DNA from: a virus
Strand: one strand, 5' to 3'
IMG/VR virus record: IMGVR_UViG_3300042301_002602
Coordinates: 1-39,527 of that record
DNA length: 39,527 nt
In this document: positions 35,421 to 38,747 of the stretch, in pieces
Position numbering within the stretch: position 1 is the first letter of the stretch
Layout: each line of letters opens with the position of its first letter
Made by a program: the position numbers and the translations under genes
Notes under the pieces: generated by a model
Databases searched by the model: none
What the model saw: the letters and a program-made list of their open reading frames with translations, nothing else
What the model was told of the DNA's origin: nothing

Positions 35421-37172
35421 ATGGATATAAGTTTGGAAACAAAAGCAATGACTATTCTTGAAACCTATGAGGGTGGTAATAATTATATATTAGGATTAAA
35501 AAGAAAATCTCAAGTAAATAAGAAATTTTACCCTACAAGGAGTCAATCGGAGTATGTCATTTCATTTCACGATAAACAACCAAAGATTGCAAAAAAATGG
35601 GTAATATTAGATTCTTATTTCGCCCAAAAACTTGCCGACGATAAATTATACACCGAAATTCCTCAAAAAGTTTGGGTTGAGAAGTTGTTGGCAGATAAAG
35701 AAAAATCTTATCACATTTGGGGTAAAGTTTTTGAAAATGAAGAATTGTCCGATTTTTGGTTACCGAAAGGAGCCATCATTAAAGATAATTCAGTTCAAAA
35801 TGTTGTTGTTGATTATTCAAAATATTCTCATAGACCTCCATTGGAACACCAAAAAGAAGCAATCCAAAAATTACTTGAAAACAAAAAGTTTATATTGGCA
35901 GATGATATGGGTTTGGGTAAAACAACCTCAACAATCATTGGGGCGTTAGAAAGTGGGTCTAAAAAAATATTGATTATTTGTCCGGCAACATTGAAAATTA
36001 ACTGGAAACGAGAAATTGAAAATTATTCTGACAGGTCAATTTTTATTGCTGAAAGTAAAAATTTCTCAACGGAACACGATTTTGTTATTGCAAATTATGA
36101 CATTATAAAAAATTTCCATGACCCAAAAAATAAAGAGGAGTCGTTAATTCTTAATTCCAAATTTGATTTGGTTATTGTAGATGAAGCCCATTATATTAAA
36201 AACGCAACCGCTCAAAGAACAAAACTTATTAATGACCTTGTTAAAAACACTGAAAGATTGTGGTTATTAACTGGTACACCAATGACTTCAAGACCGATGG
36301 ATTATTTTAATTTATTGAGTTTGGTGGATTCTCCGGTTAGTAAAAACTGGATGGCCTATGCAATAAGATATTGTGCCGGTTATCAATTCAAAGTTGGAAA
36401 CCGAAAAGTTTGGAATATTACAGGTGCGTCAAATCTTGAGGAATTAAGGGAAAGAACATCGGGAACCATTTTGAGAAGATTGAAAGAAAATGTTCTTGAC
36501 TTACCTGATAAAATTATAACTCCGGTTTATTTGAAATTGAAATCCAAAGCGTATGAAGATGTGATGGGCGAATATTATGATTGGTATGATAAAAATCCTG
36601 AGGAGTCCAAATCTTTAACCGTTCAATTCTCAAAGTTAACAAAAGTTAGACAAATTATTGCAGATGAAAAAATACATCAAACAATTGAAATTGCTGAAAA
36701 CATTATTGAACAAGGTAAAAAAGTTATCATCTTTTGTAACTTTACGGATTCTTTAAATAAAATTTTGGAACACTTTGGAAAAATCGCAGTTAAACTTGAT
36801 GGGTCAATGTCTCAACACGAAAGACAATTTAGTGTCGACCAATTTCAAGAAAATGAAAAGATTAAAGTTTTTGTTGGTAATATTAAGGCGGCCGGAACCG
36901 GAATTACCTTAACTGCCGGTGAAGCGGCAATTTTCAACGATTTATCATTTTTACCTTCAGACCACGCCCAAGCCGAAGATAGAAGTTATAGATATGGTCA
37001 AAAAAATAATGTTTTGGTTTACTATCCTATTTTCGAAAACAGCATTGAAGGAATAATTTATGATATCTTAAATAATAAAAAACAAGTCATTGAGACCGTT
37101 ATGGGTGACAGGGTTAATAAGGCCGACGCCGCGGAAGAAATCCTAAAAAGAATTAATGATTTGCGAAAATAG
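35421..37172 (+). CDS. SNF2-family DNA helicase/translocase (SMARCAL1-like)
   Basis: A superfamily 2 motor of 583 residues. It carries motif Q/I LADDMGLGKTTSTI (about 159-172), motif II VIVDEAHYI (DEAH about 254-257), motif III LLTGTPMTSRP, and in the second lobe VGNIKAAGTGITLTAGEAA and QAEDRSYRYGQ (motif VI, about 517-527). The GLGKT box and QAxDRxxRxGQ pattern are those of SNF2 proteins. The compact form without extra domains is closest to annealing helicases of the SMARCAL1/HARP type. In T4 the fork-remodelling motor is UvsW, which is not SNF2-like; this gene may fill that role. It is the first gene of the plus-strand block, 54 bases from the divergent neck operon. Confidence 0.92.
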   Translation: MDISLETKAMTILETYEGGNNYILGLKRKSQVNKKFYPTRSQSEYVISFHDKQPKIAKKWVILDSYFAQKLADDKLYTEIPQKVWVEKLLADKEKSYHIWGKVFENEELSDFWLPKGAIIKDNSVQNVVVDYSKYSHRPPLEHQKEAIQKLLENKKFILADDMGLGKTTSTIIGALESGSKKILIICPATLKINWKREIENYSDRSIFIAESKNFSTEHDFVIANYDIIKNFHDPKNKEESLILNSKFDLVIVDEAHYIKNATAQRTKLINDLVKNTERLWLLTGTPMTSRPMDYFNLLSLVDSPVSKNWMAYAIRYCAGYQFKVGNRKVWNITGASNLEELRERTSGTILRRLKENVLDLPDKIITPVYLKLKSKAYEDVMGEYYDWYDKNPEESKSLTVQFSKLTKVRQIIADEKIHQTIEIAENIIEQGKKVIIFCNFTDSLNKILEHFGKIAVKLDGSMSQHERQFSVDQFQENEKIKVFVGNIKAAGTGITLTAGEAAIFNDLSFLPSDHAQAEDRSYRYGQKNNVLVYYPIFENSIEGIIYDILNNKKQVIETVMGDRVNKADAAEEILKRINDLRK

Positions 37173-37214: not shown

Positions 37215-38747
37215 ATGAAAAAAACCGAAAAGAAAATTCAAGAACTTGAAAAAAAGATTCTCGAAAACCACATAGTTGAAGAATCCAAGTTATTGATAAC
37301 TGAAATGAAAAAAATAGGGATAGAAAAATTACCTTACGCCTATTCAGCCTTGAAATCGTTTATCGATGCAGAAACAATGGAAATCCATTATTCCAAACAT
37401 TATAAAGGATATGTGGATAAACTAAACGCCGCTTTATCAAAAAAGAAATATGGTGATTTAGATTTGGAAAAAATAATTAAAACAATCAGCCGTTTCGACA
37501 AAACTATTAGAAATAATGCCGGAGGTGCATTTAATCACGCATTGTTTTGGAATTTCCTGACACCTGAACCAACAAAATTACAAGGAGAACTTTATAAAAA
37601 AATCACAAAACAATGGGGAACATTCACCAACTTCAAAAAAGAATTTGAAAAACAAGCCAAAGAGCGTTTTGGTTCAGGTTGGGTATGGTTGATTTTAACT
37701 TCCAAAAATACATTAAAGATTATGTCTACTCCAAACCAAGACAATCCATTAATGAATGTGATTGAAGGTGGGGGATTTCCTTTATTAGGTTTGGACTTAT
37801 GGGAACATGCTTATTACTTAAAATATAAAAACAAACGAGACGAATACATTACAAACTTTTGGAAAGTCGTTAATTGGGATTTTGTTACCAAGATGTATGA
37901 GATGAAGACAAAAACAAAGTTAATTGAATCTGAAATTAAAAAATCTGTTTTATTTGAAGGTCGTTCAGATTATATCAGAATGTGTACAGATGAAGATAAC
38001 GAATTTTTCCAAAACCTACTTAGTAGAGAAGAAATAAGGTCAATCTATGGTAAAGGAATTTACCAAGCGTTATTTAAAGTTCCTTGGTTAGAATTTAGAA
38101 AAAAAGATTTATCAATCAACAGAATGCAAGGTTTTTATAAAGATGGGGAAAGACACAATATTAGTTACTTAGCGGGGAACCATAGAGCTTTTTGTATGAT
38201 TGTTAAAAGTGTTAACGAAATATTAAAACAAAGCGGACAACCTAAAATATTTCTCAAAGATAAATCTCCTGAAGAACAAGTAGTAGGGGTTAAAAGATTA
38301 ATTGATATTTTAGTTAAAAACGCACCAAAAATATTTGACGAAAACAATCCATTTTTTCAAGCAATCATGACAAACTTAGGACAGAGTATTATAAAGGGAG
38401 ACAAGGTTGAAAAAGTTAGTGAAATCAGATTGTCTAAAAAATTTGGTCGAGAAAATGTCAAAATTGAAAGTGGTTTTGGTTTAGATACGGATGCTTCCGA
38501 AGGGTTAGATGGTACTATTAAAATTGGTGGTAATATATATAAATGTCAAATAAAACCTTATAAAACTTCTTTTATTGAAGATGGTAAACTTGTTGTGTTA
38601 ACTAGTAGTACTGTTAGTAATTATAAAGTAGATTTTATGATATTCTCGAATACACAAAATACTTTAGTAATAAAAACCCAAAATACAGAATTAGGGGTTA
38701 ATACATATATGTTTCCACCTGAAGATTTAATTTACACATTAACATGA
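37215..38747 (+). CDS. Manganese/iron superoxide dismutase fused to an unknown C-terminal region
   Basis: Residues about 36-232 are a complete Mn/Fe superoxide dismutase. The metal ligands are H62 (KHYKGYV), H108 (NHALFW), D194 and H198 (LDLWEHAYY). G104 replaces the FeSOD glutamine and Q175 (NQDNPLM) matches the MnSOD glutamine, so the enzyme is probably Mn-type or cambialistic. The first 35 residues are a charged helix. The remaining 275 residues (about 236-510) are not SOD. They include a helical part, then SEGLDGTIKIGG and YKCQIKPYK, where D432, Q445 and K447 fit the D...QxK form of a PD-(D/E)xK nuclease core. The nuclease idea is inference. It starts 42 bases after the SNF2 gene. Confidence 0.9.
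   Translation: MKKTEKKIQELEKKILENHIVEESKLLITEMKKIGIEKLPYAYSALKSFIDAETMEIHYSKHYKGYVDKLNAALSKKKYGDLDLEKIIKTISRFDKTIRNNAGGAFNHALFWNFLTPEPTKLQGELYKKITKQWGTFTNFKKEFEKQAKERFGSGWVWLILTSKNTLKIMSTPNQDNPLMNVIEGGGFPLLGLDLWEHAYYLKYKNKRDEYITNFWKVVNWDFVTKMYEMKTKTKLIESEIKKSVLFEGRSDYIRMCTDEDNEFFQNLLSREEIRSIYGKGIYQALFKVPWLEFRKKDLSINRMQGFYKDGERHNISYLAGNHRAFCMIVKSVNEILKQSGQPKIFLKDKSPEEQVVGVKRLIDILVKNAPKIFDENNPFFQAIMTNLGQSIIKGDKVEKVSEIRLSKKFGRENVKIESGFGLDTDASEGLDGTIKIGGNIYKCQIKPYKTSFIEDGKLVVLTSSTVSNYKVDFMIFSNTQNTLVIKTQNTELGVNTYMFPPEDLIYTLT

What the first reader, a model, noticed from the sequence alone, without database searches (positions are those of the whole stretch)
37215..38747. Phage superoxide dismutase fused to a C-terminal region with nuclease-like motifs
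A complete Mn/Fe superoxide dismutase (ligands H62, H108, D194, H198 all present) is joined in one frame to about 275 residues that are not part of that family. Superoxide dismutases are rare in phages and I know of no such fusion. The C-terminal part carries D432, Q445 and K447 in the spacing of the D...QxK variant of PD-(D/E)xK nucleases (Mrr-like). Placement after an SNF2 motor and before a neck gene gives no obvious pathway. It might be an anti-oxidant-burst enzyme carried in the virion, or a toxin or defence effector with a redox sensor.
Basis: partly seen in the sequence, partly recalled or inferred. Interest (0 to 1): 0.75.

Follow-up and report, generated by a model that had tools for sequence, protein, structure and literature searches.

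The report
Head-packaged phage antioxidant–nuclease fusion protein
Many uncultured T4-like phages make one protein that joins an antioxidant enzyme (superoxide dismutase) to a DNA-cutting-enzyme fold, with what look like cutting sites for the phage's own head-maturation protease placed so that the two parts would be separated inside the virus head, which suggests that both enzymes travel in the particle and may be injected into the host.

Summary
One frame at 37215-38747 encodes a complete Mn/Fe superoxide dismutase (SOD) and a 262-residue C-terminal region. The same fusion occurs in 114 distinct complete proteins from metagenomic phage contigs, so it is not a sequencing error. The nuclease idea is supported. 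E399, D426, D432, Q445 and K447 never vary. The predicted C-terminal fold matches PD-(D/E)xK enzymes (I-Ssp6803I, Hjc, the SPARDA DREN nuclease).

The new result concerns processing. These phages are T4-like and encode a gp21-type prohead protease. T4 gp21 cuts after L/I-x-E. Such sites bracket the SOD in nearly every relative: one before it and two in the linker, with the residue between L and E free to change. Cutting would give a 30-residue propeptide, a 208-residue SOD and a 262-residue nuclease. Relatives without the SOD mostly keep an N-terminal extension, one such site and the nuclease at the same locus. Some are 93% identical in the nuclease to SOD-bearing ones.

Best reading: a head-packaged precursor protein cut by the prohead protease, delivering SOD and nuclease. 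Cleavage, presence in the virion and both enzyme activities are inferred, not shown.

The parts
37215..37304 (+). Residues 1-30: predicted N-terminal propeptide (helical), ending in the first L/I-x-E site
   Evidence: Low-confidence helix in the model (res 19-43 pLDDT <50); a related N-terminal segment (..INEMKKIEIEKL..) is kept in SOD-less relatives L192/L195
37296..37307 (+). Predicted prohead-protease site I-T-E|M (res 28-31)
   Evidence: E30 65/65, P3 I/L 65/65; [LI]xE|M in 107 of 114 distinct SOD+ proteins, LTE|A, LHE|A or VEE|A in six of the other seven, IQE|Q in L188
37305..37928 (+). Residues 31-238: Mn/Fe superoxide dismutase
   Evidence: Pfam PF00081 and PF02777; closest solved chains are superoxide dismutases, mostly MnSODs, E to 5e-61; ligands H62, H108, D194, H198 invariant
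37920..37931 (+). Predicted prohead-protease site L-I-E|S (res 236-239), end of SOD
   Evidence: [LIM]xE[AGST] in 64/65; 0.90 in 114 sequences with 10 kinds of residue at the x position
37950..37961 (+). Predicted prohead-protease site L-F-E|G (res 246-249), start of nuclease part
   Evidence: 60/65; P1 Glu in 121 of 124 relatives, SOD-bearing or not, mostly LSE|G, LTE|S or ISE|G; linker 235-245 pLDDT <50
37959..38744 (+). Residues 249-510: C-terminal part, helical N-terminal half plus nuclease core
   Evidence: AlphaFold2 model mean pLDDT 87.4, pTM 0.69
38376..38744 (+). Residues ~388-510: PD-(D/E)xK-like core; E399 (38409-38411), D426 (38490-38492), D432 (38508-38510), Q445 (38547-38549), K447 (38553-38555)
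   Evidence: Fold matches I-Ssp6803I, Hjc, NhoI, DpnI, SPARDA DREN over model residues 141-262; five residues invariant in 59 diverse members including a 735-kb phage
35421..37172 (+). Upstream neighbour: SNF2/UvsW-like helicase, conserved neighbour in all architectures inspected
   Evidence: PF00176, PF00271; phrog_62; synteny in L156, L182, L195
38770..39525 (+). Downstream neighbour: neck / head-tail adaptor protein (cut by window end)
   Evidence: Full-length copy L118:17041-18162 matches phrog_211 head-tail adaptor Ad2, E 1.3e-10

Best explanation
The gene encodes a precursor that enters the T4-type prohead during assembly and is cut there by the phage's gp21-like prohead protease after three L/I-x-E sites. 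Products would be a 30-residue propeptide, a free Mn-type SOD (res 31-238), a 10-residue spacer and a PD-(D/E)xK nuclease (res 249-510). SOD and nuclease would stay in the head with the DNA and enter the host with it, as T4 Alt and internal proteins do; the nuclease would act on host or competing DNA or on branched DNA, and the SOD would remove superoxide at the onset of infection. Shown here: domains, invariant catalytic residues, fold, conserved sites, protease and capsid genes in the same phage lineage, SOD-less relatives. Inferred: packaging, cleavage, injection, both activities and the biological role.
For: Sites: only two [LIM]xE[AGST] positions are conserved in the whole 510-aa protein and both lie within 14 residues in the linker; P3 and P1 are fixed while P2 varies, and P1' is mostly G, S or A. 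Control: five neighbouring conserved proteins (2,553 aa) show one such conserved position in all. A third site precedes the SOD in all 114 SOD-bearing relatives if V is allowed at P3, with P1' changing from M to A in divergent ones. The linker is low-confidence, probably flexible, in the model. The lineage encodes gp21 (PF03420), gp23 (PF07068) and gp20; its gp23 carries INE|A at residue 60, its gp21 ILE|A at 8, and the gene beside gp23, probably the scaffold gp22, many sites including ITE|S and LIE|S, the same tetrapeptide as in the window linker. T4 gp21 cuts after L/I-X-E, and T4 Alt is cut at both ends (PMC9026906). In a 318-kb relative 31 of 376 proteins have such a site near the N-terminus against 9.3 expected, none of 1000 shuffles as high. 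SOD-less relatives mostly keep an N-terminal extension, site 2 and the nuclease. Nuclease. Precedent: chlorovirus PBCV-1 packages its Cu/Zn SOD in the virion (PMC7019647).
Against: No protein evidence of cleavage or virion location exists here. L/I-x-E is a short motif; the UvsW-like helicase shows one conserved copy. The N-terminal site usually has Met at P1'. Three nuclease relatives (L156, L365, L019) lack the linker-type site, and a few have V at P3, or N, D or Q at P1'. The window contig does not itself hold gp21 (it is a fragment). No sequence profile of a nuclease family matched over its cut-off, and best fold Z scores are below 8.
Confidence: 0.66

Rival explanations
1. An intracellular auxiliary enzyme: the uncut fusion works in the infected cell, the SOD guarding the host and replicating phage DNA from reactive oxygen, the nuclease serving recombination or host DNA breakdown. 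The L-x-E motifs are incidental.
For: SOD genes are known in freshwater phages and explained as protection of the infected host (PMC6802176). The gene follows a UvsW-like helicase and the fold resembles Holliday-junction resolvases.
Against: Does not explain why P3 and P1 of two linker sites and one pre-SOD site are fixed while P2 varies, nor why SOD-less forms keep an extension with the site.
Confidence: 0.2
2. The fused SOD is a scaffold: its dimer or tetramer assembles the nuclease domains, as I-Ssp6803I and SPARDA DREN need tetramers; redox chemistry is secondary.
For: The DREN domain is activated by tetramer formation and resembles I-Ssp6803I (PMC12205087); both are among the top fold matches.
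Against: The SOD keeps all ligands and evolves slowly (88% mean identity against 47% for the C-part), as an active enzyme would; SOD has been lost or gained several times while the nuclease stays; in L156 the two are separate genes.
Confidence: 0.07
3. The C-terminal part keeps the nuclease fold but is a non-catalytic DNA-binding or structural head protein; SOD is the only enzyme.
For: Internal head proteins may be structural; no activity shown; the alpha-B helix of the classical core is not seen in the model.
Against: E399, D426, D432, Q445 and K447 are invariant down to about 25% identity.
Confidence: 0.07

Closest known systems
T4 internal proteins (IPI-III) and gpAlt with capsid targeting sequences cut by gp21 (PMC9026906)
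   Same: L/I-x-E sites, N-terminal propeptide, T4-type protease in the phage, enzyme cargo (Alt) cut at both ends
   Different: Here one precursor holds two unrelated enzymes with sites between them; propeptide about 30 residues, its likeness to the T4 signal not tested; packaging not shown
Bacterial Mn/Fe superoxide dismutases, nearest in Bacteroidota at 50-55% identity
   Same: Full domain, all metal ligands
   Different: Embedded between protease-type sites in a phage precursor
PD-(D/E)xK enzymes of the D...QxK type: SPARDA DREN, I-Ssp6803I (2ost), and the related fold of archaeal Hjc
   Same: Core fold over about 100 residues; D, Q, K placement as in DREN
   Different: Extra helical half (res 249-390), no detectable sequence family, alpha-B not seen in the model
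Chlorovirus PBCV-1 Cu/Zn SOD, virion-packaged (PMC7019647)
   Same: A virus that carries SOD in the particle; lower superoxide in its infections than with a virus lacking the gene
   Different: Unrelated SOD family, algal host; not described in the passages read as a fusion or protease substrate
SOD genes of freshwater phages (PMC6802176)
   Same: Phage-encoded SOD, aquatic
   Different: No fusion or head processing was noted in the passages read

Membership tests
Mn/Fe superoxide dismutase | Both Pfam domains over cut-off | tested here: met
   PF00081 82.7 bits, PF02777 135.8 bits
Mn/Fe superoxide dismutase | Four metal ligands H, H, D, H | tested here: met
   H62, H108, D194, H198 in 65/65
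Mn/Fe superoxide dismutase | Dismutase activity, dimer or tetramer | not testable with these tools
   Needs the protein
PD-(D/E)xK nuclease superfamily | Acidic residue, D, and (E/Q)xK in the right order | tested here: met
   E399, D426, D432, Q445, K447 invariant in 65 fusions and in 59 diverse members
PD-(D/E)xK nuclease superfamily | Core fold: helix with the acid, then strands carrying D and (E/Q)xK | tested here: met
   Helix 131-162 (holds E399=151), strands 185-189 (D432=184 at its edge) and 192-200 (Q445=197, K447=199); matches led by I-Ssp6803I (Foldseek E 4.3e-3) and Hjc (Z 7.8, 104 residues, 3.6 A); the top rows over residues 141-262 are PD-(D/E)xK enzymes
PD-(D/E)xK nuclease superfamily | Second core helix (alpha-B) between strands 3 and 4 | tested here: inconclusive
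   Not assigned by DSSP in the model
PD-(D/E)xK nuclease superfamily | Membership of a named sequence family | tested here: inconclusive
   Only sub-threshold matches: DUF6602, RE_EcoO109I, C2185-like_N; no nuclease in PDB by profile
T4-type head protein matured by gp21 | Phage has a T4-type prohead protease | tested here: met
   PF03420 over cut-off in relatives bearing the fusion (G003, G004, G031) or the SOD-less form (G021, G022, G023, G026); the window contig is a fragment without it
T4-type head protein matured by gp21 | Conserved L/I-x-E sites at domain borders | tested here: met
   control
T4-type head protein matured by gp21 | N-terminal targeting peptide sufficient for head entry | not testable with these tools
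   Propeptide present; targeting needs an experiment
T4-type head protein matured by gp21 | Cut product found in virions | not testable with these tools
   Needs virion mass spectrometry
Anti-phage defence effector | Match to a known defence family | tested here: inconclusive
   No PADLOC match for the window protein; fixed place beside phage helicase and neck genes argues against

The most novel reading that the evidence does not exclude
A large group of T4-like phages uses the prohead protease to cut a two-enzyme precursor inside the head and injects a superoxide dismutase together with a nuclease at the start of infection: a phage that delivers antioxidant protection with its genome, with the SOD as a removable module between cleavage sites.
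Probability: 0.42. Interest if true: 0.85.

Novelty: new variant of a known kind. Interest (0 to 1): 0.7.

Why it matters
If right, it extends T4-type head maturation from trimming single cargo proteins to processing a multi-enzyme precursor, and puts an antioxidant enzyme inside a phage particle, with a virus of algae (PBCV-1) as the only packaged-SOD precedent found here. It would shift the usual reading of phage SODs (helping the infected host) towards the moment of entry or towards protecting packaged DNA. It also gives a simple sequence rule, N-terminal or inter-domain L/I-x-E sites, to predict which of the many unknown proteins in these phages travel in the head; one purified virion preparation would test it.

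Tried and rejected
Sequencing error or gene-joining artefact: rejected, 114 distinct homologues from independent contigs. Bacterial contamination: rejected, same locus between phage helicase and neck genes on the contigs inspected. Named nuclease family by sequence: no match over cut-off in Pfam, none in PHROGs, no nuclease in PDB profiles. Defence effector: no PADLOC match. C-part in cellular genomes: none found in GTDB contigs by the pattern scan, which is not exhaustive. T4 late promoter TATAAATA: present at chance level in the window and not upstream of this gene, so uninformative. SOD moved elsewhere in SOD-less phages: not found in the 272-kb and 318-kb records, which may be incomplete. 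Host: nearest cellular SODs are mostly Bacteroidota at 50-55% identity, a weak hint only. Rfam: no match in the window. Coordinates of the model were not available, so distances between D432, Q445 and K447 were not measured.

Full report
Observation. The frame 37215-38747 (+) encodes 510 residues without interruption. Residues 37-226 match both Mn/Fe SOD domains far over cut-off and solved MnSODs (E down to 5e-61). Residues after 230 match nothing over cut-off.

The fusion is real and widespread. In the first sets 89 complete frames gave 65 distinct proteins, all fused, with H62, H108, D194, H198, E399, D426, D432, Q445 and K447 invariant. With further scans there are 114 distinct complete SOD-bearing and 10 SOD-less proteins. 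The SOD part is conserved (88% mean pairwise identity), the C-part is not (47%, minimum 25%). A 501-aa entry in the BFVD library (A0A6J5L953, named only 'superoxide dismutase') matches the C-part model over 257 alignment columns and is probably the same fusion, so it is already deposited but, as far as I could find, not discussed.

The C-part is a PD-(D/E)xK-type nuclease fold. AlphaFold2 with 44 sequences gave mean pLDDT 87.4. Foldseek's best PDB matches are the homing endonuclease I-Ssp6803I and archaeal Hjc; VIA-align gives Hjc Z 7.8, SPARDA nuclease Z 7.7, I-Ssp6803I Z 7.7, NhoI 7.2, HhaI 6.9, DpnI 6.4, all over model residues about 140-262. Z below 8 alone would be weak, but the top rows are one superfamily, and the invariant residues fall where that superfamily has its site: E in the long helix, D at the edge of one strand, QxK on the next. 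The SPARDA nuclease uses D41, Q60 and K62 (PMC12205087). A free-standing relative in a 735-kb phage (L019) shares the five residues at about 26% identity. Pfam and PDB profile searches give no named family. The helical half (249-390) has no assignment.

The phage. Longer contigs with the fusion carry T4-type gp21 protease, gp23 capsid, gp20 portal and gp17 terminase. The window has tail sheath, baseplate J-like and other tail genes. The lineage includes records of 272 and 318 kb.

The cleavage-site pattern. T4 gp21 cuts after L/I-X-E, removes N-terminal propeptides of internal proteins, and cuts Alt at both ends (PMC9026906). In the fusion only two positions of the form [LIM]xE[AGST] are conserved, residues 236-239 (64/65) and 246-249 (60/65), both between SOD and nuclease. 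Their L and E are fixed while the residue between takes about eight to ten kinds, and the next residue is mainly S or G. A further [LI]xE|M stands just before the SOD in 107 of 114 distinct proteins; six of the seven others have LTE|A, LHE|A or VEE|A there and L188 has IQE|Q. As a control, five neighbouring proteins with 2,553 residues had one conserved position of this form. In the same phages gp23 has INE|A at residue 60, gp21 has ILE|A at residue 8, and the gene next to gp23, probably the scaffold gp22 (identified by position and composition only, no family match), has many, including ITE|S and LIE|S. In the 318-kb relative 31 of 376 proteins have an L/I-x-E-[AGSN] site near the N-terminus, against 9.3 expected and at most 21 in 1000 shuffles, often in the form MK(I/L)IITES.

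Modular SOD. At the same locus, between the UvsW-like helicase and the neck gene, three arrangements occur: fused (window), SOD-less (L182, L195 and others) and two overlapping genes, SOD then nuclease (L156). SOD-less L192 has 'SINEMKKIEIEKL-KSIISEGKSERCS' where the close SOD-bearing L327 has 'FLNEMKKIGIEKL-[SOD]-LKSVISEGKSERCS'; the nucleases are 93% identical. On the nuclease tree SOD presence changes at least four to six times. Repeated loss is the simpler reading because SOD-bearing forms are the majority and lie on most branches, but direction was not tested.

Mechanism. The best-supported account is a head-packaged precursor cut by gp21 into propeptide, SOD, spacer and nuclease. That cutting happens, that the products remain in the head, and that they are injected are inferences from T4. 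The SOD could act on superoxide at entry, as suggested for the virion-packaged SOD of PBCV-1 (PMC7019647), or protect packaged DNA. The nuclease could attack host or rival DNA, or resolve branched DNA; nothing here decides. Confidence: fold about 0.9, head processing about 0.7, injection of both about 0.4.

Novelty. The parts are known kinds; their combination in one precursor with protease-type sites between them was not found in the papers searched, a search limited to open-licence full texts. SODs in freshwater phages have been reported and read as protection for the infected host (PMC6802176).

Noticed in passing
L290-L305 (318-kb record G022), e.g. L295:14683-15141, L297:250-621, L297:7671-8075: Many small unknown proteins begin MK(I/L/V)(I/L)ITES or similar, an apparent shared head-targeting and cleavage signal; 31 of 376 proteins against 9.3 expected.
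   Followed up: partly
window:29087-29914 (-); L109:3252-4076; L304:864-1682: A protein with HAD-phosphatase-like sequence (YYAFDWDDNIV) starts with an L/I-x-E-G/A site (MKRQLKEG, MEPIIKEA, KIIEG), so it may also be head cargo; no Pfam match.
   Followed up: partly
L299:8176-9582; L301:13816-14415: A DHH-phosphoesterase-like and a RuvC-like protein carry N-terminal LIKES/LKES sites.
   Followed up: partly
L156:1923-4250: The helicase gene has an in-frame insertion after LVVLDE with intein-like sequence (CFTYDTKI...HNYFANNILVSN), in the contig where SOD and nuclease are separate genes.
   Followed up: no
L115:11829-13571 and L112:5512-7134: The probable scaffold protein has, in L115, a tandem run of LEE[SAG] repeats, many potential protease sites in a row.
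   Followed up: no
BFVD A0A8D9CCA0: A 1113-aa protein of an uncultured marine phage matches the C-part model (TM 0.79), probably another fusion with a different partner.
   Followed up: no
phages collection H1-H9, H14: Several records named as phages (OR84xxxx/OR85xxxx, AFYI, AGRM, PQ520312) hold SODs at about 44-52% identity that look like bacterial chromosomal genes, probably host DNA in phage records.
   Followed up: no
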